NCBI GenBank assembly: GCA_947498705.1
Contig: CANMLW010000001.1
Location: 744,001 to 808,000 of the forward strand
DNA length: 64,000 nucleotides
Reading direction: 5' to 3'
Source of the DNA: an uncultured Aquimarina sp.
Lineage (GTDB): Bacteria; Bacteroidota; Bacteroidia; Flavobacteriales; Flavobacteriaceae
The notes under the pieces were generated by a model. It was given only the letters and a program-made list of their open reading frames with translations, was not told where the DNA came from and ran no database searches. The position numbers and the translations under genes were made by a program. This document shows positions 19,263 to 48,666 of this stretch, one piece after another (position 1 is the stretch's first letter; each line of letters begins with the position of its first letter).

Positions 19263-22200
19263 TTAATAACGATTTGGTTTAATAAAATCATTGTCATGTA
19301 ACCTCTGGCTATCGTAATTCCAAGCCCTTCTAATAGCTTCTCTTCTTTTTCGATCACAATCTGGACAACCTTGTTGAGTAGTGCCTGTTGGCGCGGGAGT
19401 AATAGATGGAGTAATTCCATTAGGAGTTAAGCTATTTACAGATGTAGGAGGGTTCATTGCTCTATTCAAATGTCTAATTACGTCCGTACTACCATCCATC
19501 ATAGTAGGTACTCCATCTACAAAAGATATAAATCTATCAACATTGGGGTTATACATCCAATAGATCATACTTTCTGGATTTTCTATTTGTGACCCATCAG
19601 GACCAACACCTACAGATGCGTTACCACCTATTACTGTCGCTCCTGTAATTTTTGATAACTCTGCGGCAAATGACCTAGTATCACTAGAACCACAAGTAGC
19701 ACCATTACAATTACCCATGTATATTATTGCACTACTAGTGAAATTGATTTCTCCATTTTTAATAGCATCATTTAAAACACTTAAATCAGAAGTGCTAATA
19801 TCAGTATTTCCAGAAGATCCACTACCCCAGATATTACCTGGAACACCATGACCCCATATAGCAGCAAAACCAATACCATTTGGATCAGAAGCAGATGCAT
19901 TTCTAAAAGCATTAACAAAACTATTTATACCTCCTGATTGTATGTTAGTATGTTGTGTATTAGGATGTGCTCTCTCTAAAATATCACCCCTATACTTCAC
20001 ATCATTACCAAGTGTAATTGCCAAAACAGCTTCTAATCCTTCAAGCTCAAAGTGACTTATAACTTTATTTTCAGAAAAGGCATATGTAGAATTATAAACA
20101 AATTTTTCAGCCAAAGGATCAACTTGCCAGAATCTTCCAATTGCAGGATCATGAATACGCCATCTAAACTCATGAACATTTAGCTCTAAATCTTCCGTAT
20201 GCTCTTGACCTTGAAAATTCCAATTATACTCTCTACCAACAATTCTGTTATTGTATCCTTTATGTTCAAGTCCAAAAGGATAATAATTCTTTTCTTCTTT
20301 AATAGTAAGTTCTCCTTTGGATAATTTTACTTCATCCACATAAAAATAGGTGGTTTGATCCTCATGGGTATTGTTTTTATCAATTCGTAATACAATCTTT
20401 TTACCAGTTTTTACAGTATATGGATATGAGTATGTTCCTGTAGACAAGTTACTCTCTAGAATATTCCAGCTAAGGTGGTTTCCATTAGCATCCAATTCCT
20501 GGATATATAAACGCACATTAGCATTGGTGTTTCCTTTATCAAAAGTAAGTTGTACAGTGAGTTTATCTCCTGATTGTACTGCAAAATCAGAAAGACTGTG
20601 GCGTAAACCTTCCCAACTCTTATCAACAGTTACTTTTGTCCTACCATTTTCCAATACAGAATTGGCAGCCCCATTATCTTGCCAACCGTCTTTATCATCG
20701 GTAAAACTACTGGCCAAAATGTTTTGATAATCCCCATCGCGATCTGCGTAGGATAGTCTAACGTTTCCTAAATGATCTTTATACTGATAAATATACGTAA
20801 ATCCTGTTAATTGCTGGGTACCATCCCTTCCATCACTATAAACGGGTTCTACATATCCTTCGGCATGGTTAAAGAACTTGAGTTTGGTTCTGGAGGATAC
20901 TCCTGGATCCCAATTCTGGAAAAATAAGTCATATACATAATTACCTGCATATTGTGTTAATACACGCCCTCCTCGTTCTCCTGTAGCTTCTTTAACCAAC
21001 TTGGTACCCGTAGCATCATATCGATATAACATATCCATGGTAGATCCCGGTGGGCCATATTCTCTGCTAGATTGTACATGAATAGGTAGGTTTAAATGAT
21101 TATATCGTATCTCGGAAATTTGCTTATTAAGATCCTTTGTAAGATTGCCATTGGCATCATAGGCATAGTCATCACCAAATGTATTACCATCATTAAACCC
21201 TGTAGAAATATTACTTTGGTCTGTTACCGACATCAATTTATTTCCCTGATCAATACCTTTACTATTTCTATACGAATACACTAAGTTGTCCATTACACCA
21301 AAGCTGGTGGTCTCTTCGTTACGGTGTCCATTCCTGGTTAATGAAAGAATGTTTCCATTTTTATCATAACGAACATTGGTTAGATTATAACTCCCATTAC
21401 TACAATAGGCATCGGTAAGTCTATTTATGGCATCATAACCATAGGAATAGGATCGTTTGGTATTATCATTAGCCGTTTTCCAGATCGTTTCGCTAATATT
21501 ACCATTATATAACGCATCGGCTCTAGCTGTATTTTCGGTTACCTGATCATAGTTAATACCAAAACCAAATAAATCATCTCCTAAAGCAGCGGTATCATTA
21601 ATCCCTTTTAACCATCCTCTAATATTATAAGTATAATCTATCGTTTGCAAAGGACTGACTTCACTATTCCCTACTTTTTTCTGTACTACTTGTCCCAACT
21701 CATCGTACACATTAGAAGCAATCATCTCTACTGCCCGATCATTGATCTTTTGGGTATGGGTTAATTGCCTACCCATATGATCATAGGTAAAGTTGTCTAT
21801 GGTAGTAATTAATGGATTATTATCTTTACTATGAATAGTTTGGCTTTTTAAGACTTTACCTGTAAAATCTAATTCCATCTCTACGATATCTATAGTATTG
21901 AGGTAGTCATTTTTGGCAATGGTAGCAATTACTCTTCCTTTATCATCATAATAAGAAGCCATATGAATCCATTTTCCAGTGCTTAGTACTTTTACCTTGC
22001 TATTACCAGGTAAGCCTTTAAGCTTATTAGTTACCGTTATACCAAATACAGTGCCCGGATTTGGAAGTGCATCATTATAGAACTGATATCCATCATAATA
22101 GTTGATAGTTAGTAGTTCTATATTGGTTTTAGGAAAACTATTATTAGTGTACATAGCATATGTACCCCCTATTAGATGAGGTGAACCATTATTTTCTGAT

Positions 22201-23939
22201 AATGGATTTTGATCGATTTGTTGTTGTATTTGTTCACTAGTCAAATTTCCACTAGTATACAGCCCCGTATAGATTACACGACCAAACGCATCATACTTGG
22301 TAAATGTCCATTGTTTACTGGATCGTTGATTTACATCTTGTGTCAATACAGGTTGATCCAGTTTATTATAAAGAATGTATTCTCGTCCTTTACCCGGTAT
22401 TTTCTTTTGGATCAAACGATTTCTATAATCGTATATATATTGATAACATAATTCTGATAATTCTGCGGGTGATACTCCGTCGGTCACATTTACTTTTGGC
22501 GGAATTACATACGTCAAATTTCCATAGTCATCATATACATAATAGGTGTCATGTGCATCAAACCCAGATACTCCTCTTTCTCCATTGGCATTAAACGTTC
22601 GTTTTAAAATGACCTGCCCTTTCTTATTTTTATATTCACGTATGGTATGATCATTACCAGTATTACTTGCCCAGTTTTCGTCTTTGGTAATCGAGATATA
22701 TAACTGCCCTTCACTATAGGTTCCTTCTTTTCTTAGGTTTGGGTGGTGGGTATTGTGGGGATTAGAAAAGGTTACCTTAAAATAAGGGATGGCATCGGCT
22801 GTCGTATTGGTTTGCCAATCAAATTTTATGGTATGATCTGCATCACTTTCTGGATTCGCTTTCCAAGATGCTCCCGGAGCCCCTTGTTCTAAAGTCCTGT
22901 TAAGCGGTGACGCTTCTAATACACTTTCGGTATATGGATTGGTGGTGTTTTCATATTTTGAAGTATTATAGAAAGCATTTAACTCTGCCAAAGGATTGGT
23001 ATAGATATCCCCTTTTTTAGTACTGGCTGCGGCATACGATAAATATTCTTTGGTCTTTCTTCCTAGATCATCATACTCATGATACGTAACTATATCTCTT
23101 GGTTTAGCGTATTTTACATAGTCTTTTATAGACTGGCTATTATTGGATTGTATGATCTGCGGATTCCAGAAATATTGTCGTACCGATGTGTCGACTGCAT
23201 AGTACAAATAACTTCTAAAGTTAGCATTAACCGTATTGCTTCTCCATTTAAAATCATTCCCTCCTTTTACTCTGGTTCCATTCATATCATACACTCCACT
23301 TATACCACTATTACCACCGGTATAGGTATGAGGATGGATATATCCTACCATCAAATACCAGGTATCTAACTGGGGTAAATCACCTGCCCAAAAGTATGGG
23401 TTATCTTGTGATGTACCGTTTAAGTGATTTACATTATGAGTACCGTGATAGGTCATACCATCTTGTGATCCGGTACGTTTTACCCAAACCATATAACGAT
23501 ACCCTACATTTTTATCCACAGAAAAGTAATCTGTATTCCATCCACCATCGCCATCTCGGGCTGCATCATTTCCACAGCGCCATAACATCGATTGTTCTCC
23601 AAAAGGATTGGTTCCAAAAATACGTTCGTTATCAGAAGATTGCCCATTCATATTATAGGTAGCAGTATGCCCCGTTCCTAAAGTCCAATCGGTGGTCCAA
23701 TCTAATATGTTGGTACTTTGTGTCTGTCCTCCTGCACGTACCGCAACAGATTGTTTGGCACGGCCTAATCCATCAAAATAATTAACAGAAACGACCTTGT
23801 CGCTTTCGAGCACCTTATACTCTTCACCTTCTTTTACCGCTTTTTGATACGCAGTGGTTTTTACATAATTCTCTGTTTGTGTCTGTGCACATACTACTGT
23901 ACTTATTAATACAGCTATGGCCAAAAATATATTTCTCAT
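19263..23939 (-). CDS. DUF6443 Rhs-repeat protein with C-terminal caspase-like (DUF4347-like) tip
   Basis: 1558 residues from ATG 23939, giving the signal MRNIFLAIAVLISTVVCAQ. An in-frame ATG at 23978 would overlap the upstream gene by 26 nt and bury the signal. The N-terminus (TQTENYVKTTAYQKAVKEGE ... SVNYFDGLGRAKQSV) is the DUF6443 domain of Bacteroidetes Rhs proteins. YD repeats follow, then the Rhs core with YQYKDHLGNVRLSY, YYPFGLEHKGYN and the plug DPAIGRFWQVDPLAEKF. The final 254 residues are variable tip: AAIWGHGVPG (tip His60) and IIYMGNCNGATCG (tip Cys107) followed by AELSKITGATVIGGNASVGV. This His...Cys pattern resembles the DUF4347/CHAT-like caspase fold. The tip ends with a CPDC-containing basic tail. 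Likely a polymorphic toxin or protease effector. Confidence 0.88.
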   Translation of the reverse strand: MRNIFLAIAVLISTVVCAQTQTENYVKTTAYQKAVKEGEEYKVLESDKVVSVNYFDGLGRAKQSVAVRAGGQTQSTNILDWTTDWTLGTGHTATYNMNGQSSDNERIFGTNPFGEQSMLWRCGNDAARDGDGGWNTDYFSVDKNVGYRYMVWVKRTGSQDGMTYHGTHNVNHLNGTSQDNPYFWAGDLPQLDTWYLMVGYIHPHTYTGGNSGISGVYDMNGTRVKGGNDFKWRSNTVNANFRSYLYYAVDTSVRQYFWNPQIIQSNNSQSIKDYVKYAKPRDIVTYHEYDDLGRKTKEYLSYAAASTKKGDIYTNPLAELNAFYNTSKYENTTNPYTESVLEASPLNRTLEQGAPGASWKANPESDADHTIKFDWQTNTTADAIPYFKVTFSNPHNTHHPNLRKEGTYSEGQLYISITKDENWASNTGNDHTIREYKNKKGQVILKRTFNANGERGVSGFDAHDTYYVYDDYGNLTYVIPPKVNVTDGVSPAELSELCYQYIYDYRNRLIQKKIPGKGREYILYNKLDQPVLTQDVNQRSSKQWTFTKYDAFGRVIYTGLYTSGNLTSEQIQQQIDQNPLSENNGSPHLIGGTYAMYTNNSFPKTNIELLTINYYDGYQFYNDALPNPGTVFGITVTNKLKGLPGNSKVKVLSTGKWIHMASYYDDKGRVIATIAKNDYLNTIDIVEMELDFTGKVLKSQTIHSKDNNPLITTIDNFTYDHMGRQLTHTQKINDRAVEMIASNVYDELGQVVQKKVGNSEVSPLQTIDYTYNIRGWLKGINDTAALGDDLFGFGINYDQVTENTARADALYNGNISETIWKTANDNTKRSYSYGYDAINRLTDAYCSNGSYNLTNVRYDKNGNILSLTRNGHRNEETTSFGVMDNLVYSYRNSKGIDQGNKLMSVTDQSNISTGFNDGNTFGDDYAYDANGNLTKDLNKQISEIRYNHLNLPIHVQSSREYGPPGSTMDMLYRYDATGTKLVKEATGERGGRVLTQYAGNYVYDLFFQNWDPGVSSRTKLKFFNHAEGYVEPVYSDGRDGTQQLTGFTYIYQYKDHLGNVRLSYADRDGDYQNILASSFTDDKDGWQDNGAANSVLENGRTKVTVDKSWEGLRHSLSDFAVQSGDKLTVQLTFDKGNTNANVRLYIQELDANGNHLSWNILESNLSTGTYSYPYTVKTGKKIVLRIDKNNTHEDQTTYFYVDEVKLSKGELTIKEEKNYYPFGLEHKGYNNRIVGREYNWNFQGQEHTEDLELNVHEFRWRIHDPAIGRFWQVDPLAEKFVYNSTYAFSENKVISHFELEGLEAVLAITLGNDVKYRGDILERAHPNTQHTNIQSGGINSFVNAFRNASASDPNGIGFAAIWGHGVPGNIWGSGSSGNTDISTSDLSVLNDAIKNGEINFTSSAIIYMGNCNGATCGSSDTRSFAAELSKITGATVIGGNASVGVGPDGSQIENPESMIYWMYNPNVDRFISFVDGVPTMMDGSTDVIRHLNRAMNPPTSVNSLTPNGITPSITPAPTGTTQQGCPDCDRKRREAIRRAWNYDSQRLHDNDFIKPNRY

Positions 23940-23952
23940 CTCTAATGCTGTA

Positions 23953-26900
23953 TTAGTTGTTTTTATAATTGTATTCATTTCTTGATAAAATGTTGGCGTC
24001 TTTATCTTTTACCAACTTAAGACGGTTAAATTCATCATAAGAATAATAGGTAGTGTTACCTCTGGGGTCAGTTACGTTATCCACACCAATAAGAGGAATA
24101 TGGGTCATACTGGTAAACTGTGCATTTCTAAAGTAAGAATGATTGCGTAAACTATTTAACTGAGCCTGCACATATTCATTGGTCCCTGCAGTAATGAAAC
24201 TAGTACTTAAGGTATTTTTAATCTGTGCTATGTTATCCAAAACATCCTGTGGCATCCCTTCATATGAAGCATTTACAATTTTAGCAATAGGTAAGGTATC
24301 ATCATATCCCCAGATATAGATAATACGAATACCGTCTGATTGGGAAACCTCTAATGGGTTACCATAGTTGTCATAACGATGATAAGTCAATCGGGTTTCC
24401 AGGCCATTTTCTCCCTTACCTATTTTAACTTCTTTTAGCGCCCGTAGATTTGCTTGAAAACTACCGTACACCTTATAGACAATATCCAACGGCTTTAAGT
24501 TATCTCCTCTAGGATCATTCGATTCATCGACTACCTCATTATTACTAATCCATATCGGTTGGGTATCACGATACAGCAAGCGTTGTTTAAACGTTCTGGA
24601 CACTCCATTTTCTTTAACTTCTCTGGTAATCCAATTGGGTTGATAACTATTTGTATCATAGTCATACGTTTCAGAATTCTCTACAATAGATGGAGTGTCA
24701 TTAGTATCATAAAAATATGCTTTACTGATTTTACCCGTTTGATACACTCTACTGTGATATAGGGGGTATTTATAAGCTTCGATAGAAGGATGTGGTAAAC
24801 AGTTTTCATAATAAGGAGCATGTGGATCATAACTTATATTTTGAGATTTTGGAAAAGGACGATCTGGGAAATCCTGATCATAGTATCCATGATATCTTCC
24901 ATAAAATTGATTCCAAACACAACGTTTTCGTTCTATAAATATAGATTCTGCTATTTGATCAGAGGTGCTTCTATAATTTAACGAATCTTTAGAAAGAATT
25001 CTTTTTTCTTGATCATATACGGTTTGAGTCAATAAATTACCGTGCAGATAAGACATATCTTTTACAGGAGGAAAGGGATAATCATAATTTATGTCATAGG
25101 TTGGGTGATCTACCGCAGAAGAATACGTATATTCAGTACTTCCGTTTCCGGTCTTAACTACTTTTACCTTTTTATACCCCACAAAACTTCCTTGACTCAT
25201 CGCTACATCTTGCCTGGCAGGATATTGATATACTTTATAGTTTACAATTAATTCATGAGGTATAGGCCCCCTTGTAGCATTTGAACGGCTTGCCAACAAG
25301 ATATGCTCCTCTCTCATAGTATATGATCTGGTTTTGGTTAAAAAACCATCTATAACTCCAGAAGAAACTATATGACTAATTCTACCTGGTCTGGGATCAA
25401 TGGGTTCTCCAGACTCTGTTTCGTGATATTCATACAACGTATTGGTAGCTACTTGATCTGCATCGGTAAAACGAATTTCTTTAATTCGGATTCCTCCACC
25501 ATACATAAATTTTTTCAAGTTTCTTTTAAAATTTCGGTAATAAATTGTAGTGTGAGTAGATACGTATTCGCTATCTCCAGGACGTGGGTTATCTGCTATA
25601 GAAAATAATCTTACGGTATACGTTCCTGCATCTAATCTTGATTTTACTCCATTGGCATCCAATTCGAACTGAGCAACTCTATTCCCACCTCTATCCAAAA
25701 TATGAATTCTAGAGTTTTCAATAGCTGGCCTATTATTCACTAAAACATTGGATTGTATTACTATTTCTGTACTTTCATTAATGCTAAATGAAAAAGATTC
25801 ATCAGACAAGCCATTAGTATTGCTATTTGCATTATCAAAATCACCAAATTTATACTCTATTGTAGCATTATCGGGATTGTACTCTCTAAACTCCTGATCA
25901 GTAAACATACGGCTCCCTTCATGTGTAAAGGTATTGGATTCGAAAATAAATTCTTTTTTCCCTCCTGTAGGGTATGAGATACTTTTTAAAGCCCCGGTCA
26001 TAACCACATCTTTATTGGCACTATAAGGAAAATCATAGGAATAAGAGATGGTTCCTTTTCGATATCCCCAAATATCGATTTTATTGTTTTCTATACCTCC
26101 AGATAAAGGAAATTCATTATACGATAAATGATATGTAAGTGTATTATTACCATATACTTCTTGCAAAGTGTTTAAAAACAATGGATTTCCAGAATACGTA
26201 AACACCCATTTTTTAATTTCATCTCCTTTTTTGTTAAGTACTTTGACCTCTTTTAATTGTACCCCCGTATTATCTTTATATTCGGGGTGTGGGCCCTGTG
26301 AAATAAATTCCACTTTGGTTTGGTCTCTAAAAACTACAGAACTAAGTTTTTTTGATAGTACGTCTATTTCGGATAATGTTTTACTATAAGCAGGCTTCAA
26401 AATTCCATCATTATAAGACCCATGATAACTATGTATACCACTGGTACTAGCTTGTACATAGCTATCTCTCACATTCTGATCTATCTCATAAAATATCTCA
26501 GAATGAGGAGGGTTAAATATTTCTCTTACATTTTTATAATTAAAACTTGCTAACAAAGCACCACTATCTTTTTTAACACTGCTTATTTTCCAGGCTGAAA
26601 TATATCTACTTTCCTGAGAACTAACGCTACTTGTGGATATAGAAGAACTTTGAAACCTAGGAGCAACAGTTACTCTAGAGGTGCTCTCTTCTGTTTGGTC
26701 TAATAAGTACTTATTTCCTTTTCGATCGGTTACAGTAAAAGATTCGATCTCATATGGATTTTTATATTTTACAGATACTTGTAACTGTGATTCATTAGAA
26801 ATCATTTTAATTTTATAAAGATGATTTTCTTTAATGATTACAAAACGTGCGGTTGCTCCAAAAAGATTTAACTGAAAAAGATCCAGTTCGTTATCATAAT

Positions 26901-27420
26901 TCCCTTCAAAAGTACCTGCACTATTACCGTTGGCTTTCCACATAAAAGCATCTTTTTCGGTACTAGAAAAATTATCCCAATTAAAAAAAGTATTATGCTG
27001 TACGCCTATTTGGTACTTCTGTTGTATTCCAGGTTGAGGAGATTCAATTTGATCGATCTCATCGGCAATATCACGTACGGTCCTAGAGATTACTGCTTCT
27101 CCGTCTAATGCCCAGCCTTTGCCGACCCAACCAGATCGTTCTTCTGCTCGTATACCAAGTGTACTATAACTTAACCCAATATTATACCCCAATTCACTGG
27201 TAAGGGCTTTACTAAATATGGGCACACCAATACTTGGTTGCCCACTATAGTTGTTTACAGGTACTTCTTCAAAATGCATCAAAGCAGCAACTGTAGGCGA
27301 TGGGGGTAAAATTGTGGGTAAGTCTGATGGCTTACTTTGTTGATCCCCTCTAGGAGGTTGCTGTGCAACAACAACTGCCATAAACAGAAAGTGTATTGCA
27401 AGACCAATAATTTTTCTCAT
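23953..27420 (-). CDS. Rhs/SpvB-like N-terminal partner of the Rhs locus
   Basis: 1155 residues from ATG 27420 (MRKIIGLAIHFLFMAVVVAQ signal; an in-frame ATG four codons upstream is also possible). The start of the mature protein, PPSPTVAALMHFEEVPVNNY with IGVPIFSKAL, and LSYSTLGIRAEERSGWVGKG are the SpvB/TcaC-like opening of Bacteroidetes Rhs proteins. Long beta-rich repeats follow, and the end NTTYYSYDEFNRLKLV is a YD repeat. There is no Rhs core or toxin tip, so this is the cocoon half and the downstream gene, 13 nt away, carries core and tip. Two-gene Rhs loci with this order are common in Flavobacteriia. Secretion route is not shown by the sequence; both have Sec signals. Confidence 0.85.
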   Translation of the reverse strand: MRKIIGLAIHFLFMAVVVAQQPPRGDQQSKPSDLPTILPPSPTVAALMHFEEVPVNNYSGQPSIGVPIFSKALTSELGYNIGLSYSTLGIRAEERSGWVGKGWALDGEAVISRTVRDIADEIDQIESPQPGIQQKYQIGVQHNTFFNWDNFSSTEKDAFMWKANGNSAGTFEGNYDNELDLFQLNLFGATARFVIIKENHLYKIKMISNESQLQVSVKYKNPYEIESFTVTDRKGNKYLLDQTEESTSRVTVAPRFQSSSISTSSVSSQESRYISAWKISSVKKDSGALLASFNYKNVREIFNPPHSEIFYEIDQNVRDSYVQASTSGIHSYHGSYNDGILKPAYSKTLSEIDVLSKKLSSVVFRDQTKVEFISQGPHPEYKDNTGVQLKEVKVLNKKGDEIKKWVFTYSGNPLFLNTLQEVYGNNTLTYHLSYNEFPLSGGIENNKIDIWGYRKGTISYSYDFPYSANKDVVMTGALKSISYPTGGKKEFIFESNTFTHEGSRMFTDQEFREYNPDNATIEYKFGDFDNANSNTNGLSDESFSFSINESTEIVIQSNVLVNNRPAIENSRIHILDRGGNRVAQFELDANGVKSRLDAGTYTVRLFSIADNPRPGDSEYVSTHTTIYYRNFKRNLKKFMYGGGIRIKEIRFTDADQVATNTLYEYHETESGEPIDPRPGRISHIVSSGVIDGFLTKTRSYTMREEHILLASRSNATRGPIPHELIVNYKVYQYPARQDVAMSQGSFVGYKKVKVVKTGNGSTEYTYSSAVDHPTYDINYDYPFPPVKDMSYLHGNLLTQTVYDQEKRILSKDSLNYRSTSDQIAESIFIERKRCVWNQFYGRYHGYYDQDFPDRPFPKSQNISYDPHAPYYENCLPHPSIEAYKYPLYHSRVYQTGKISKAYFYDTNDTPSIVENSETYDYDTNSYQPNWITREVKENGVSRTFKQRLLYRDTQPIWISNNEVVDESNDPRGDNLKPLDIVYKVYGSFQANLRALKEVKIGKGENGLETRLTYHRYDNYGNPLEVSQSDGIRIIYIWGYDDTLPIAKIVNASYEGMPQDVLDNIAQIKNTLSTSFITAGTNEYVQAQLNSLRNHSYFRNAQFTSMTHIPLIGVDNVTDPRGNTTYYSYDEFNRLKLVKDKDANILSRNEYNYKNN

Positions 27421-27525
27421 AAAGTGATTCATTGATTTTTTTGTTTTGATATCGTATTACTACAAACTATTTTCAGGCACCAAAACTACGGCAAAACCTT
27501 ACATACTAACGAATATATAGGAGGG

Positions 27526-40642: not shown

Positions 40643-41069
40643 AATACGTTTATTTGAATGTATGGAATGTATATTAATTCATCGTTGTCAAACTTATTTC
40701 AAACTAATCTTTGTGAACACTAATAAACGCTATTTAATACAATTACCTAATAATTCTTGTAATTAAAGAGTTGTAACCATTTGCTAGTGTTTTCTTAAAT
40801 GCATTTAAAAACCTAAATTATTTAACCTATGTTTGACCATATTTTTTTTATTAGACCTGAATACAAATACTCAAATTAGAATTCGGTAAAATATTATTGC
40901 ATAAAAGTAAAAAAAACAAAGAAGGAAAACACCCGATAGCATTACGCTTTATAAAAACAAAATTCCAAAATACAAATTCCTTAAGTATATAGGTACTAAA
41001 GATTGAAATGAGAAAAAAGGAAAGGTTAAACTGTCGTATCCTAAATGATCGATACAAATTATTTAGGAC

Positions 41070-41300
41070 GCGGTAAACATCTTTGCTTTTTAGACTATCC
41101 CCCATCTCTTGAGTCATCCACATCAAAATCACTCTCATCTACATAAACTATGGGATGCTTGTCAACAAACTACTAGCCAAAGATCTTGAATAGAAATAAC
41201 ACTCTTACACTCATCTGTTTTAGAGTTGAACAACATTTTTTACTATGTAAATCAACACCACATAAATAGATTGCTCTCAAAAAATCCAAACTTTGTGTAA
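41070..41300 (-). pseudogene. decayed IS630-family transposase remnant
   Basis: The minus strand reads, across frames, FT**KMLFNSKTDECK then SVISIQDL, then after a frameshift HPIVYVDESDFDVDDSRDGG (41157 to about 41098), then *SKKQRCL. This aligns in order with the IS630 core VTYKKTLKHPKADE ... KPIVYVDESGFAHDMPRTHG-YS-KRC. It has stops and frameshifts and no ends were found, so it is a relic. The surrounding 40643-41574 region (932 nt) holds no intact gene; only this relic and an inverted repeat TCCTAAAT / ATTTAGGA (about 41039-41067) were seen. Confidence 0.6.
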
Positions 41301-41415
41301 TTATGATGTTTTTATAATCGAGAGGTATATTTTTCTCTAAAAACAAGATATACACTCTTTAATTAATCGAAATTCAAGAATATCGCACAAAATTCCGGAA
41401 TATCTATAGAGAACT

Positions 41416-41448
41416 TTTGTTCTTATCCTTTATCTCTTTATATGTTTG
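41416..41448 (+). promoter_or_regulatory. promoter of the peptide/isoprenyl synthase cassette
   Basis: -33 box TTTG at 41416-41419, 21 nt spacer, -7 box TATGTTTG at 41441-41448, matching TAnnTTTG. The predicted start near 41455 gives a 120-nt leader before the small peptide ATG at 41575. Confidence 0.65.
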
Positions 41449-41574
41449 GTACCACTCAGAAACATTAATATCAAAAAGAAATTATAATTAAAAAAATTGA
41501 ATAACAACTAAATAGGACTATGCTGATGCCTATTAATAAAGAAAGCTAATATTAATTTAAAAATTTTTATACAA

Positions 41575-41733
41575 ATGTCAAAATTAGATGATTTTAAAGT
41601 AGAAGAACTAGAACAACGACTTGAAATGGCTCAATGGTCAGCAAAAGTGAAAGGCAACCGAGACGGCTGGACAGGTGAAATTGGGGTTGTTTGGGGGCAA
41701 CCCGGTAATGAAGGGCAACCTGGTATGCCATAA
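41575..41733 (+). CDS. 52-residue candidate RiPP precursor peptide
   Basis: ATG at 41575, stop TAA at 41731-41733. The peptide has an acidic-amphipathic leader-like part MSKLDDFKVEELEQRLEMAQ (helix with EELEQRLE), then WSAKVKGNRDGWTGEIG, and a Gly/Pro tail VVWGQPGNEGQPGMP with two GQPG repeats. Trp residues are at 21, 32 and 40. There is no Cys, so it is not a lanthipeptide. It is followed by two hairpins and then genes for a prenyl-synthase/cyclase fusion and a PqqD-M50 protein. The pattern leader-helix plus Trp-bearing tail plus prenyl-synthase-fold partner recalls ComX/ComQ, where Trp is isoprenylated. It has its own promoter at 41416-41448. Confidence 0.7.
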   Translation: MSKLDDFKVEELEQRLEMAQWSAKVKGNRDGWTGEIGVVWGQPGNEGQPGMP

Positions 41734-41746
41734 CTAATTGAAATAT

Positions 41747-41815
41747 CAGGAATATTGTTAATCAACAATATTCCTGGTTCAGTAATCAAAAATATGTTTT
41801 TTGAATCAAAAAACA
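41747..41815 (+). promoter_or_regulatory. two hairpins between peptide gene and modification genes
   Basis: First stem: CAGGAATATTGTT (41747-41759) with AACAATATTCCTG (41764-41776), perfect 13 bp, 4-nt loop, no T tract. Second stem: TGTTTTTTGA (41795-41804) with TCAAAAAACA (41806-41815), perfect 10 bp around one A. Together they look like a partial terminator or RNA-processing site that lets the peptide mRNA accumulate over the enzyme mRNA, as is common between RiPP precursor and enzyme genes. Confidence 0.6.
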
Positions 41816-41878
41816 CCAAACAAATCTCAGGATCATAATAATCAAATGCAACTCTTTATAATTTAATATCAAATAAAT

Positions 41879-43846
41879 ATGCAGCTTAAAACAAACGCAA
41901 ATTATATTTCAATACATAAAATTAAAAAAGATTTAGAAAAAGAAGTTAAACTTGAATTATTAAAGTACCTGAAGTCGAAATCATATACTATTGAGATTAT
42001 TGAACAAATCATAGATGAAGATTTTATAGCTTATAATCCTAGCTACTATTTATATTATCCATATTTATTTAATGAATATTTTGAAATTACAGATAAAAAA
42101 ACCCTAAATCAGTTATCTATATCAGGTTTTTTATATTATAAAGCAATCATTTTAATTGATGATATTTTTGACAATCAGCACAGCACTGAAAAGTTTAAGC
42201 AATACATGATTGCAAACATTTGTCAAGAAGAAGCTATAAAAATTTTGAGTGCTTTATTTTCTCAAGGTTCTAGTTTTTGGAACACTTGGAATAGAAGGAA
42301 ATTTGAATATTCTAAAGCATATAAGCTTGACAAAAGTATAATCACAATTAAAAACTTTTCTGAATACGAAGTCTTAGCAGATTACAAGAGTGCTTTTGGT
42401 AAAATTGCAATTGATTGTTTATTTCACTTATCTAATAAAAAGAAGAAAGATACATATGATAATCTCTTAAAAACCCATTCATTTTTTTATACTGGATTTC
42501 AGATAATTGATGACATAAATGATTATGAGGAAGATGTTAAAAATGGTCAATTCAATATTTCAAAACACGAACTAATTAAAGTTTTATCAAAAGAGAATGA
42601 CTTGATTGAAAATTACTCTGTCGAAGAACAAAAAAAATTAATCTACCTAAAAAAAGTTTCTGAAAACTTATATATCAAAGCAATAAACTATTTAGATAAA
42701 GCCTCTAATCTTATTAATTCATTTAACAATAGTAAAAAATGTCTATGGTTACAGGAAATATATAATTTACACAATACAAGCATTTCACATTTTTTAAATA
42801 TAAATGGCTTTATTGAGGTTTATGAAACAAAAAAAAATAAAGTCACCTATTTTAGTAAGCACCATTCTATAAGTGATGTATTAACTAATGCTATCAATTA
42901 TTTACAAACCAATCAACAAACAAATGGTAATTGGAACGATATATTTAATGATGCGGGTATTAGTGATGTTTGGACTACTTCCTTTGTAACATATTCCTTA
43001 TTGAAATATGATATAAAAGATTTCAAATTAACAAAAACCAAAGAGTTTATATCTAGAAGTAGATCATCTGATAACCTTTGGGGTTATAATAAGTCTTGGG
43101 TTAACGATGCAGACTCATCTTCTTTTGCATTTCTTTGCTTACAAAGTGATATAGAAATTAAGAAATCTCTTGAAAAATGGTTAAGTTTTCAAAATAAAGA
43201 TGGTGGTTTTTCAACTTACAATAACGAAAATACTTTATTATCATCTTTAAATAGTCCTAATATACAAAATACAGACGGATGGCTACAATCACATTTTTGC
43301 GTGAGTGCCGTAGCTTATTTAGTTTTTATTGAATTAAAAATTACTGATTCTAAAAGTTTTAAAGAACTTAGGGATTATCTGATTTCTAAATTTAATTCTA
43401 ACGAAAAACATTTATCGTATTGGTGGAGCGAAGATATTTATGCCATTAATTACATTTTATTAGGAGCAGTACAATTTAAAGATGAGCAAATCATATCTTT
43501 TTGCGAAAATTTTATCGAAAAAATAATCATCACAAACGAAGATAATTATTTTTTTAAAGGATTGCTATTACACACTTTATGCTTAACTGACAACCTTTTT
43601 AATAAACATAATAAAGTAATTACAGAATTAGTTTTTCAAATCACATCTAATCAATATAAGGATGGTTCTTGGGTCGAGAATTTCTCGTTAAGAATACCCC
43701 ATCCAAGTATAATAAATCCAAACAATGAGAATCTTGTTTGGGAAAAAGGAAATAACGGCACAAACATTATTGTAAAAGATTATAATAGAATATTTACAAC
43801 CTCATCTTGTTTAACAGCTTTAAAGGCATATGAAAGAAGAATATAA
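41879..43846 (+). CDS. isoprenyl synthase / terpene-cyclase-like fusion, candidate peptide prenyl-cyclising enzyme
   Basis: 655 residues, no signal peptide. Residues about 1-310 form a class I isoprenyl synthase domain: first Asp motif DDIFD (94-98), second DDIND (211-215) followed by YEED, plus W-N-R-R at 137-140. Residues about 330-655 are an alpha/alpha-toroid of the squalene-hopene cyclase/prenyltransferase type, with QW-like motifs QQTNGNW (346-352), QNKDGGF (438-444) and QYKDGSW (592-598), and D410-A-D412-S413 in place of DxDD, which keeps the catalytic middle Asp. ComQ, which prenylates Trp in ComX, has the first fold only. The next gene overlaps by 17 nt. Free terpene synthesis remains an alternative. 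The gene looks AT-richer than its neighbours. Confidence 0.75.
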   Translation: MQLKTNANYISIHKIKKDLEKEVKLELLKYLKSKSYTIEIIEQIIDEDFIAYNPSYYLYYPYLFNEYFEITDKKTLNQLSISGFLYYKAIILIDDIFDNQHSTEKFKQYMIANICQEEAIKILSALFSQGSSFWNTWNRRKFEYSKAYKLDKSIITIKNFSEYEVLADYKSAFGKIAIDCLFHLSNKKKKDTYDNLLKTHSFFYTGFQIIDDINDYEEDVKNGQFNISKHELIKVLSKENDLIENYSVEEQKKLIYLKKVSENLYIKAINYLDKASNLINSFNNSKKCLWLQEIYNLHNTSISHFLNINGFIEVYETKKNKVTYFSKHHSISDVLTNAINYLQTNQQTNGNWNDIFNDAGISDVWTTSFVTYSLLKYDIKDFKLTKTKEFISRSRSSDNLWGYNKSWVNDADSSSFAFLCLQSDIEIKKSLEKWLSFQNKDGGFSTYNNENTLLSSLNSPNIQNTDGWLQSHFCVSAVAYLVFIELKITDSKSFKELRDYLISKFNSNEKHLSYWWSEDIYAINYILLGAVQFKDEQIISFCENFIEKIIITNEDNYFFKGLLLHTLCLTDNLFNKHNKVITELVFQITSNQYKDGSWVENFSLRIPHPSIINPNNENLVWEKGNNGTNIIVKDYNRIFTTSSCLTALKAYERRI

Positions 43847-45044
43847 AAAAGAAATAGTTTATAAATCAACTAAAATTGAAATTGGAGTATTCAATAATTC
43901 TTCAGAATATATCGTAACACAAAAAGAATTAGGTAATAGAATTGTTATAAATGCCAAAACACTAGAAATACTCAATTTAATAGATGGTAAAACTTCTTTA
44001 GAGGGAGTCGTTTTAAAATATAATAAACAAAACCCCCTAGCTAAATTAGATGTAAAAACTGCCTACTTCATACTTTATGAAAAACTTTCAAAAGTAGGTA
44101 TTATTGAAAATAAAAATATTACATATAACAAGAAAAAAGTAGCCTCATATTTGGCTTTAAGTTTTACATTAGTAAACAAAAAAGCGCTTGGCTTTTTTAT
44201 AAAAATACTATCACCTATATTTATATTTAAACATTTCTATAAAATTTTATTTACTTCTCTAATCATTGTTTTATATACTGTAATCATAAACTATGATTTA
44301 TTATCTAACAATATACTCACAACAACTGCAACAAATTGGGTTTTCTACCTAATAATAAGTGGTTTAACTCTTTTTTTACATGAATTTGGGCACGCAACTG
44401 CTTGTAAAAAATTAGGTGCAGAACCAGAAAATATTGGTTTTGGGTTTTACATGCTATCTCCTGTAATGTTTGCAGATGTTTCAGATGCATGGAAACTAAA
44501 AAAAAAGGAAAGAATCTATATTAATTTTGCAGGCTTGTATATGGAAGCTCTTATTGCACTAATACTAGCAATTGTATATATTTTTACTAAAGAGATTTCT
44601 TTACTTATTTTATGTTCTATGACACTACTTAGTTTTGTAGTAAATTTAAACCCATTACTAAGATATGATGGTTATTGGGTTTTGTCGGATATTACAAATA
44701 CGCCAAATTTGAGAAAAGTTTCACTACAAAAATTTGATTTATTTGTAAAATATTTATTGGGTAAAACCAAGTTTTATTTTTCCTCAAAAAATATATTTTT
44801 GATAATTTATGCTTTTATAAGTTATACATATATATTGTTTTTTCTAGGATATATTCTTTTAAATGATCCTAATTCGATTTTATCTTTTCCGATTGATTTA
44901 TATCATTTTTTTAAAGAATTTATAATCAGTAAGGAAAATTTTAATTTTTCGAATATCTCTAGATTTATCTTACCTTTTCTATTCTATTTTATTACAATTA
45001 AATTTATTATTAAATTAATAAGAAAAAAATTGATTCGACAGTAA
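43830..45044 (+). CDS. PqqD-like domain / M50-type membrane metallopeptidase
   Basis: 404 residues. Residues about 8-95 look like a PqqD-type RiPP recognition element: EYIVTQKELGNRIVINAKTL, EILNLIDGKTSLEGVV, AYFILYEKLSKVGII. Then several membrane helices; the zinc site HEFGH (184-188) lies in a membrane segment, and NPLLRYDGYW (274-283) supplies the third ligand Asp280 and the site-2-protease-like loop. Related fused proteins (peptide zinc metalloprotease, YydH-like) process or export modified peptides in RiPP clusters. The start overlaps the prenyl-synthase fusion by 17 nt, so the two are translationally coupled. Role: binds the leader and cleaves or exports the peptide, by inference. Confidence 0.85.
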   Translation: MKEEYKKEIVYKSTKIEIGVFNNSSEYIVTQKELGNRIVINAKTLEILNLIDGKTSLEGVVLKYNKQNPLAKLDVKTAYFILYEKLSKVGIIENKNITYNKKKVASYLALSFTLVNKKALGFFIKILSPIFIFKHFYKILFTSLIIVLYTVIINYDLLSNNILTTTATNWVFYLIISGLTLFLHEFGHATACKKLGAEPENIGFGFYMLSPVMFADVSDAWKLKKKERIYINFAGLYMEALIALILAIVYIFTKEISLLILCSMTLLSFVVNLNPLLRYDGYWVLSDITNTPNLRKVSLQKFDLFVKYLLGKTKFYFSSKNIFLIIYAFISYTYILFFLGYILLNDPNSILSFPIDLYHFFKEFIISKENFNFSNISRFILPFLFYFITIKFIIKLIRKKLIRQ

Positions 45045-45149
45045 TAAGCAATATATTCACTTCTTATTCACTATATAATTAGTATTCGAAAACTTTCTAT
45101 ATAATTTCTTTCTTGGCATTTTAGTAAAAGAAATACGTCAAAAGTAGTA

Positions 45150-45992
45150 CTAATTTTTAGTATTAAATTTTGATCCTTTCGGGGGTCTATAGTTAGAAAA
45201 TGGTAATTTTAATAAAGTAACAATCTTTGTATTTGTATCAATTTCAGGATAGGTATCTATCCCATATTTGAGGTCTTTACATTGCATTTTTGAAAAAGTT
45301 CCAAAAATTCGATCCCATATAGAAAATATATTACCATAATTAGTATCGGTATAAGGTAACGTATGATGATGATGCACCTTATGCATATTGGGTGAAACGA
45401 TCACCCAACTAATCAAACGATCTATAGGTTTGGGCAAAGAAATATTTGCATGATTAAACTGAGATAAAATAACAGACAGGGATTGATACAACATAATAAT
45501 ACCTACAGGAGCTCCTGCTATAAAAACAGCTAACGTTGTAAACAAAAACCTGATCACACTCTCTCCTGGATGATGTCTATTTGCTGTAGTAGTATCTATA
45601 TAAGTATCTGTATGATGAATTAAATGAAACATCCATAAAGGTTTTATAATATGTTGTAAATAATGCGCAAGCCATGCTCCTATCAAATCCAAAATAGCAA
45701 CTCCCAATACTATCGTAGCCCATAATGGCAATGAAAACCATTGCAATACTCCAAAGTTATTAGTGATCGTCCAATCACTAGTTTTTAATAATATAAATGC
45801 AAGAAAAAAGTTAACAATAATGGTAGTTAGTGTAAAAAAAATATTAGGCCATGCATGTTTAAACTTTTGATACTTAAACTTGAATAAAGGAGCTGCATAT
45901 TCGATAAGCCAAAAAAAAGCAATGCCTCCTACCAACAATATACTCCTATGAGAAGAAGGAATCGTCTCAAAATACTGTAACAAATTTTCCAT
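45150..45992 (-). CDS. sterol desaturase / fatty acid hydroxylase family protein
   Basis: 280 residues with about five membrane helices. The three histidine boxes of the di-iron membrane hydroxylase family are present: HYLQH, HLIHHTD, and HKVHHHH, with NRHHPGES between them. This family hydroxylates fatty acids, sterols, carotenoids or alkylglycerols. Substrate unknown. It is convergent with the peptidase (105 nt gap) and so probably separate from the peptide cassette, though an oxidation role on the same lipid product cannot be excluded. Confidence 0.88.
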   Translation of the reverse strand: MENLLQYFETIPSSHRSILLVGGIAFFWLIEYAAPLFKFKYQKFKHAWPNIFFTLTTIIVNFFLAFILLKTSDWTITNNFGVLQWFSLPLWATIVLGVAILDLIGAWLAHYLQHIIKPLWMFHLIHHTDTYIDTTTANRHHPGESVIRFLFTTLAVFIAGAPVGIIMLYQSLSVILSQFNHANISLPKPIDRLISWVIVSPNMHKVHHHHTLPYTDTNYGNIFSIWDRIFGTFSKMQCKDLKYGIDTYPEIDTNTKIVTLLKLPFSNYRPPKGSKFNTKN

Positions 45993-47499: not shown

Positions 47500-48666
47500 A
47501 TGAAAACTAAAAACAGATTGAACCAATTTAAAATTGGTATGCTTGCTATTGCCCTATCTTTTGCTTCTTGTACGAAGAATGATAATTTTGAAGAAGTACC
47601 GGATACAGAAGATCAACAAAATGAATTTATCGAAAAGTACTTTTTAGGCAACAAAGTTATGGTCAAAAAAGAAGAAGACGGTACGTTTAAATCTGGAGAT
47701 ATTCACTACATGCCAGAGCAATTAACTGATATTCCTGTAGAAATTGAAGAAAACCCAGAACCAGATGCCGCTGTAAGCTCTAAATTAGGACTATGGGGCA
47801 GTGTTAATAAATGGCCCAATAATACTATTGTTTACGTGATTAATGGACTAAGCCAAAGTGTTCGTAACGAACTTCAAAAATCTATGGATGAGTGGACAAA
47901 CAAAACCAATGTTCGTTTTAAAGAAAGAACCAATGAAAATTATTATGTTACGATAAGTAGTAATGGTAATAATTGTAATTGTGGATCTGCAACTTTAGGA
48001 GTAAATGGATCCAGAGGTTTTATTAGATTAGGAACGAGAACCACAGCGGTCGTAATCATACATGAAATAGGTCATACTCTTGGTTATATACATGAACAAA
48101 ACAGATCTGATAGAGATAATCATGTTAGAATAAACTGGGAAAATATCTCTGCTGGAGCAGAAAGTCAGTTTCAAAAAAGTAACTCTTCTACGCTTGTAAC
48201 TAGAGATTTTGATGTAAGGTCGACCATGATGTATGGTAGTTATACATTTAGTAAAAATGGACAGCCTACTATTGTACAAAATGATGGTAGTCTTATACCA
48301 AGAAGGCAAGCTGCATTATCTGCACTTGATATTGAAGGGACTAATAAAGTCTATCCCGGAAGTACTGATCCAGATCCGGATCCGACCAATCCTTGTACTG
48401 GTATAGACGAATGGCAAAGTGGTGTTCGTTATTCTGTAGGTGACAAAGTTACGTATAGAGGTTACTTATATGAAAGAGATTTTACCAGATGGAATCGAAT
48501 TGCAAAATGTGAGGTCACTACTAATCCAGCCGATATCTGCGATGGTGTTAGTGATTACAAAAGCGGAACAAGGTATTCTTCTGGTGACAAAGTAGTATAC
48601 AATGGTTTTTTATATACGCTAAATGAAAATAACCAATGGATCAATAGTGGTAGATGTGGTTCATAA
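47500..48666 (+). CDS. astacin-type (M12A) metalloprotease with CBM5/12-like tail
   Basis: 388 residues. Lipoprotein signal MKTKNRLNQFKIGMLAIALS with FASC (lipidation Cys24). Propeptide-like region to about 95, then catalytic domain: WPNNTIVYVINGLSQSVRNE, zinc motif HEIGHTLGYIHEQNRSDRD, and Met-turn STMMYGSYTFS. The zinc motif HExxHxxGxxHE is that of astacins. After a Pro/Asp linker (TDPDPDPTNP) there are two short modules W-x-x-G-x-x-Y-x-x-GD-x-V-x-Y-x-G-x-x-Y of the CBM5/12 chitin-binding kind. Probably acts at the cell surface or is secreted on polymeric substrate. Ends before a long palindromic terminator. Confidence 0.88.
   Translation: MKTKNRLNQFKIGMLAIALSFASCTKNDNFEEVPDTEDQQNEFIEKYFLGNKVMVKKEEDGTFKSGDIHYMPEQLTDIPVEIEENPEPDAAVSSKLGLWGSVNKWPNNTIVYVINGLSQSVRNELQKSMDEWTNKTNVRFKERTNENYYVTISSNGNNCNCGSATLGVNGSRGFIRLGTRTTAVVIIHEIGHTLGYIHEQNRSDRDNHVRINWENISAGAESQFQKSNSSTLVTRDFDVRSTMMYGSYTFSKNGQPTIVQNDGSLIPRRQAALSALDIEGTNKVYPGSTDPDPDPTNPCTGIDEWQSGVRYSVGDKVTYRGYLYERDFTRWNRIAKCEVTTNPADICDGVSDYKSGTRYSSGDKVVYNGFLYTLNENNQWINSGRCGS

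What the first reader, a model, noticed from the sequence alone, without database searches (positions are those of the whole stretch)
41416..45044. Candidate new peptide-isoprenylation/cyclisation cassette: RiPP-like peptide, prenyl-synthase-cyclase fusion and PqqD-M50 peptidase
Seen: a 52-residue Trp/Gly/Pro peptide gene with its own promoter, two hairpins, a 655-residue fusion of a class I isoprenyl synthase (DDIFD, DDIND) with a cyclase-like toroid (QW-type motifs, DADS), and an overlapping PqqD-like/M50 peptidase. Known: ComQ, a polyprenyl-synthase-fold enzyme, isoprenylates Trp of the Bacillus ComX precursor; PqqD-like domains bind RiPP leaders; class II cyclases use a DxDD acid. Inferred: the enzyme transfers an isoprenyl chain to Trp (W40 in VVWGQ or W32) and the fused domain cyclises it, and the M50 protein trims and exports the product. 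I know of no described system with this composition.
Basis: partly seen in the sequence, partly recalled or inferred. Interest (0 to 1): 0.95.

Follow-up and report, generated by a model that had tools for sequence, protein, structure and literature searches.

The report
Peptide with a cyclised terpene tag
Three adjacent genes in a Bacteroidota genome encode a small peptide, an enzyme that joins an isoprenoid-transferase-like half to a terpene-cyclase-like half and would likely build a ringed terpene on one tryptophan of that peptide, and a membrane protease predicted to trim it; enzymes of this kind have been described since 2024, so this is a new member of a known kind rather than a new invention.

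The parts
41416..41448 (+). Bacteroidetes-type promoter-like match TTTG-N21-TATGTTTG (consensus recalled), unproven
   Evidence: 6 matches in the window, 5.57 expected by chance
41575..41733 (+). precursor peptide gene, 52 aa, leader FKVEELEQRLEM followed by a Trp-containing core
   Evidence: only match in the own genome
41635..41637 (+). codon of W21, the Trp at the family-conserved place (predicted modification site)
   Evidence: in 57 of 64 distinct precursors the first Trp lies 2 or 3 residues after the residue that follows RxE; no Trp in the leaders (0 of 1366 residues)
41747..41776 (+). perfect hairpin with 13-nt arms just after the precursor stop (predicted attenuator or mRNA stabiliser)
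   Evidence: strong hairpins of other sequence follow the precursor stop in L005, L008, L010, L012 and L017 (0 of 200 shuffles as low for each); L007 gave no simple hairpin
41795..41815 (+). second hairpin, 10-nt arms
41879..42838 (+). P half of the fusion (residues 1-320): trans-isoprenyl-synthase-like prenyltransferase
42500..42502 (+). codon of Q208, the Gln before the second Asp-rich motif implicated in Trp binding
   Evidence: 90 of 90 proteins, own included; role from PMC13290415 section 2.4
42839..43846 (+). C half of the fusion (residues 321-655): MstE-like class II terpene cyclase
43106..43117 (+). DADS motif; D412 aligns with the MstE acid D109
   Evidence: alignment, numbering offset of one read by eye; D410 in 89 and D412 in 88 of 90 proteins
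43830..45044 (+). M50 site-2-type protease with an N-terminal RRE/PqqD-like domain, 404 aa
   Evidence: NF041824 daptide protease E 5.4e-40, below cut-off; model pLDDT 87.5; fold matches
43851..44117 (+). RRE/PqqD-like domain (residues 8-96, predicted to bind the leader)
44379..44393 (+). zinc motif HEFGH of the protease
   Evidence: H184, E185, G187 and H188 invariant in the 19 aligned sequences, own included

Best explanation
The cassette is predicted to make a ribosomal peptide carrying a cyclised terpene on one tryptophan: the precursor's leader would be held by an RRE-like domain, the P half of the fused enzyme would likely attach a C10-C20 isoprenoid to W21, the C half would likely cyclise it, and the M50 protease would likely cut off the leader. 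Shown here: the three genes, the two enzyme folds (as confident models) with their catalytic residues, the RRE-like plus site-2-protease fold (as a model), and the conserved leader and Trp across the family. Known from the literature for a fused trans-IDS-like enzyme, ChrPC: transfer of C10-C20 donors to an internal peptide Trp and cyclisation by the C domain. Inferred: that this enzyme does the same, that W21 is the site, and the order of steps. My proposal for the last step: the terpene pulls the leader-core junction into the membrane, where the intramembrane protease, gripping the leader with its RRE-like domain, cleaves close to the modified Trp. The mature product would be a terpene-anchored peptide of roughly 30 residues. 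Its target, the chain length and the export route are unknown.
Confidence: 0.8

Rival explanations
1. Same pathway, but the modified residue is W40 (or W32) in the C-terminal part, as in relatives whose only Trp is C-terminal.
For: Precursors of L035 (VVWRF), L049 (CWIG, CWWGGE) and L075 (CWLA) have no leader-proximal Trp but a C-terminal one; the window's VVWGQ resembles L035's end.
Against: 60 of 64 distinct precursors have the proximal Trp, 54 of 64 have exactly one Trp. L035 has the other cyclase type, and the L049 fusion is only 27% identical to the window's. The nearest relative with context, L005, has the proximal Trp and a second one at its C-terminus.
Confidence: 0.15
2. The fusion makes a free terpene (diphosphate or aromatic meroterpenoid), and the peptide and protease are a separate neighbouring RiPP system.
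For: The C half is closest to MstE, whose ligands are small prenylated aromatic acids (PDB titles); class II cyclases usually act on small molecules (recalled).
Against: The precursor and the M50 protein accompany the fusion in most loci, while besides a CarboxypepD_reg protein no other gene cluster is shared by more than 10 of the 39 stretches compared; the Gln of Trp-specific transferases is invariant; several tandem precursors lie directly before the fusion in L006, L008, L010 and L040.
Confidence: 0.05
3. Only prenylation takes place; the C half binds the chain or peptide but has lost cyclisation.
For: Its acid motif is DADS rather than DxDD.
Against: MstE itself has DADT, with D109 the mutated acid (PDB titles; alignment); D410 and D412 are kept in 89 and 88 of 90 proteins.
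Confidence: 0.07

Closest known systems
ChrPC and NctPC, fused prenyltransferase-cyclase maturases of ribosomal peptides (Hubrich et al. 2024, Chem, doi 10.1016/j.chempr.2024.07.026; seen only through passages of the review PMC13290415)
   Same: Fused P and C domains; trans-IDS-like P domain with Gln-SARM signature as in ChrPC; MstE-like C domain as stated for NctPC; a Trp-bearing ribosomal peptide as likely substrate.
   Different: No experiment here; ChrPC's sequence, precursor and gene neighbours were not available. C. defluvii (L040) and another genome of that genus group (L046) carry a different cyclase type from the window's, while L048 and L049 of that group carry the window's type, so which type ChrPC has cannot be told here.
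MstE, merosterolic acid synthase (PDB 6sbb-6sbg)
   Same: Cyclase fold, acid position, LRIP-P motif near the C-terminus.
   Different: MstE is a single domain crystallised with prenylated dihydroxybenzoates; the window's C half is fused to a transferase and lacks Arg and Tyr opposite MstE R337 and Y157.
Daptide biosynthesis intramembrane metalloprotease (NCBIfam NF041824)
   Same: Match over residues 25-340, N-terminal domain plus M50 core, RiPP setting; a daptide protease (TfDapP) is predicted to remove the leader (PMC12338566, passage).
   Different: Below the family cut-off (137.7 of 300 bits).
ComQ, PalQ and Ord1, trans-IDS-like Trp prenyltransferases
   Same: Superfamily fold and Trp-recognition Gln (PMC13290415).
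   Different: None is described in the section read as carrying a fused cyclase.

Membership tests
Fused prenyltransferase-cyclase RiPP maturases (ChrPC kind) | trans-IDS-like P domain with FARM and SARM | tested here: met
Fused prenyltransferase-cyclase RiPP maturases (ChrPC kind) | Gln just before the SARM (Trp recognition) | tested here: met
   Q208 in 90 of 90, own included; role from PMC13290415
Fused prenyltransferase-cyclase RiPP maturases (ChrPC kind) | class II terpene cyclase domain on the same chain, with acid motif | tested here: met
Fused prenyltransferase-cyclase RiPP maturases (ChrPC kind) | neighbouring precursor with leader and Trp-bearing core | tested here: met
Fused prenyltransferase-cyclase RiPP maturases (ChrPC kind) | transfer of an isoprenoid to peptide Trp and its cyclisation | not testable with these tools
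   needs enzyme assay and MS
Fused prenyltransferase-cyclase RiPP maturases (ChrPC kind) | sequence kinship with ChrPC itself | not tested
   sequence and primary paper not held
MstE meroterpenoid cyclases | cyclase fold with the DxD acid | tested here: met
MstE meroterpenoid cyclases | MstE residues R337 and Y157, which were mutated in the PDB entries | tested here: not met
   no Arg or Tyr opposite them in the pairwise alignments (read by eye)
Daptide protease NF041824 | score above the curated cut-off | tested here: not met
   137.7 of 300 bits
RRE-bearing site-2 (M50) proteases | HExxH, NPxxRxDGYW and site-2-protease core | tested here: met
RRE-bearing site-2 (M50) proteases | RRE/PqqD-like fold at the N-terminus | tested here: met

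The most novel reading that the evidence does not exclude
Bacteroidota and Balneolota carry a modular terpene-peptide platform: one conserved leader (F-x-V-E-E-L-E-x-R-x-E), one Trp-prenylating domain, and interchangeable cyclase domains (an MstE-like and a squalene-hopene-like type exchanged on related transferases), finished by an RRE-bearing intramembrane protease that uses the freshly installed terpene as the membrane anchor that presents its own cleavage site; accessory modules (MauE-thioredoxin for two-Cys cores, radical SAM) add further rings. Each cassette would then give a different terpene skeleton on a different peptide.
Probability: 0.3. Interest if true: 0.72.

Novelty: new member of a known kind. 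Interest (0 to 1): 0.48.

Why it matters
Enzymes that build polycyclic terpenes directly on a ribosomal peptide are recent; the passages of the review seen here name two fused examples. This cassette and its relatives (90 proteins, 40 loci) supply a compact three-gene case with a conserved leader, a predictable Trp site, two cyclase types and a candidate leader protease, so leader rules, cyclase swapping and maturation become directly testable.

Tried and rejected
Rejected: (a) a new kind of system, because ChrPC and NctPC are described; (b) W32 or W40 as the main site; (c) export by the M50 protein; (d) a promoter better than chance; (e) a known RNA family in 41000-45500: none at gathering scores; (f) plasmid-borne relatives: none in the plasmid collection; (g) a second precursor copy elsewhere in the own genome: none found. 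Led nowhere: NCBIfam and Pfam for the precursor and NCBIfam for four other precursors; a literature search on PqqD-M50 proteases.

Literature: the searches behind 'described as ChrPC/NctPC' were made, all in the open-licence PMC library only. Papers: PMC13290415, abstract and outline, passages, section 2.4 and part 1 of 4 of the references; PMC12715784 and PMC12338566, passages only; Hubrich 2024 not seen. Not resolved: which cyclase type ChrPC has; chain length; export; target. Foldseek gave no row under E 0.001 for the protease model; the RRE reading rests and on the TbiB1 rows (E 0.07 and above).

Rows dropped: L014 and L018 as near-copies of L013; L001, L002, L003, L045, L047 and L051 as duplicates or halves. 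The first tree wrongly labelled L036 and L038 as the window's cyclase type; I rebuilt it as without L014, L016, L018, L031, L033, L034, L036 and L038 (near-copies, fragments or no full cyclase seen). A count of 3 forced type changes fell to 2.

Full report
What is there. The window holds three same-strand genes: a 52-residue peptide (41575-41733), a 655-residue protein (41879-43846) and a 404-residue protein that overlaps it by 17 nt (43830-45044). Two perfect hairpins lie between the peptide and the fusion, and that stretch folds far better than its shuffles (z -4.59). Of six other loci whose stretch after the precursor was folded, five (L005, L008, L010, L012, L017) have a strong hairpin of different sequence, 0 of 200 simple shuffles folding as well; L007 gave no simple hairpin.

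What that points to. A 2026 review (PMC13290415, section 2.4) describes the trans-IDS-like P domain of ChrPC as acting on an internal peptide Trp with C10-C20 donors while its C domain cyclises the chain, and names a Gln just upstream of the second Asp-rich motif as a mark of Trp recognition. It also describes NctPC, whose cyclase domain resembles MstE (passage). Q208 sits there (QIIDDIND). The primary paper (Hubrich et al. 2024, seen as a reference) is not held, so I could not compare sequences with ChrPC.

Gene neighbourhood. A scan of one genome per species found 40 loci. An M50 match is present in 33 of 40. Of the 7 without it, L033, L034, L038, L041 and L043 end inside or soon after the fusion, and L031 and L044 have a truncated or fragmentary fusion. 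A small ORF with the leader pattern lies upstream in 36 of 40; of the 4 without (L016, L030, L041, L043), L016 and L030 have under 120 nt of upstream sequence. The pattern gave 67 hits in these 40 loci, 1 in the window and 0 in ten codon-shuffled sets. It was written after seeing the peptides, so the fairer test is regions seen later: of the 14 stretches, three are duplicates and three (L084-L086) had been seen in part; of the 8 others, 4 have a motif peptide (L075, L079, L080, L081) and 4 do not (L076, L083, L087, L088). The 4 with the peptide also have an M50 match; the 4 without have none. L084, which has fusion and M50 and a radical SAM gene beside the fusion, has no motif peptide.

Where the terpene would go. 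Trp was not part of the pattern, so its place is an independent observation. In 64 distinct precursors the first Trp falls 2 or 3 residues after the residue that follows RxE in 57, and within 6 in 60; 54 of 64 have a single Trp; the leaders have none in 1366 residues. Within the leader the R and second E are fixed by the pattern; the Phe (pattern also allowed Leu) is in 64 of 64 and the Leu at R-3 (pattern also allowed M, I, V) in 63 of 64. In the window the conserved Trp is W21. The exceptions: L035 and two L049 peptides and, in later regions, L075 have only a C-terminal Trp, one L006 peptide has it one residue further on, and L080 has no Trp.

Family-wide features. Cyclase halves fall in two types: 27 of 37 fusions with frames over 500 residues (own and some near-copies included) resemble the window's, 10 resemble that of Chryseobacterium defluvii, which has a DIDDLGQ motif and whose best PDB matches are squalene-hopene cyclases. 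On the P-domain tree (37 rows) the types are interspersed: 6 changes on the best tree, of which well-supported branches force 2. The clearest case is Balneolota: L029, with the window's type, sits inside a well-supported set (99/92) with L037 and L039, which have the other; its P half is 59% identical to theirs, its C half 27-29% over short stretches, while the C halves of L037 and L039 are 60% identical. A MauE-thioredoxin module is fused to the M50 protein in L006, L008, L009, L010 and L012, beside it in L023 and L025, and present in L038 where no M50 was seen (Pfam MauE confirmed in three of these and in L023). These 8 of 34 loci all have precursors with two Cys in the core, against 7 of 26 others (Fisher p 3.5e-4, near-copies not fully removed). 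A CarboxypepD_reg-like protein lies upstream of the fusion, usually between precursor and fusion, in 20 of 38 loci, not in the window. The fusion is sporadic: 4 of 140 genomes, own included, match at all (own and one congener with the window's type in full), and 18 of 395 genomes of the phylum, own included, several by weak partial matches.

Verdict. The cassette is a conserved terpene-peptide RiPP cassette by prediction and a new member of the ChrPC/NctPC kind, not a new kind.

Noticed in passing
L029:7959-9965 against L037:7956-9953 and L039: Closely related transferase halves (59% identical) carry different cyclase types, which looks like a domain swap in Balneolota.
   Followed up: partly
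L006:9913-11997, L008, L009, L010, L012, L023:16174-17046, L025, L038: A MauE-thioredoxin redox module is fused to or beside the M50 protease in 7 loci and present in an eighth (L038, no M50 seen); all 8 have two-Cys precursor cores, which would suggest disulfide-containing products.
   Followed up: partly
L005:980-2164, L020:6674-7837, L029:7114-7950 and 17 other loci: A CarboxypepD_reg-like protein (276-417 aa) with a signal-like N-terminus (by eye) lies upstream of the fusion in 20 of 38 loci (of three scanned, one above and two below the Pfam cut-off); role unknown.
   Followed up: no
L048:2330-3646 (also L027 and L042): A radical SAM protein is encoded beside the fusion in L048 (Pfam); L027 and L042 have 449-478 aa genes downstream that look similar by eye (not scanned), perhaps a second modification.
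   Followed up: no
L047 and L051: In one genome of the Chryseobacterium group the fusion gene is split by a transposase-like gene (by eye).
   Followed up: no
L036, L080: Transferases with no cyclase half detected stand beside an M50 protease and a leader-bearing peptide; the L080 peptide is Cys-rich without Trp.
   Followed up: no
window 19263-27432: Two very large adjacent minus-strand proteins (1571 and 1159 aa) with RHS-like repeats, by eye.
   Followed up: no
window 47500-48666: A 388-aa protein that looks like a secreted astacin-type metallopeptidase (HEIGHTLGYIHEQNR) with a repeated C-terminal module, by eye.
   Followed up: no
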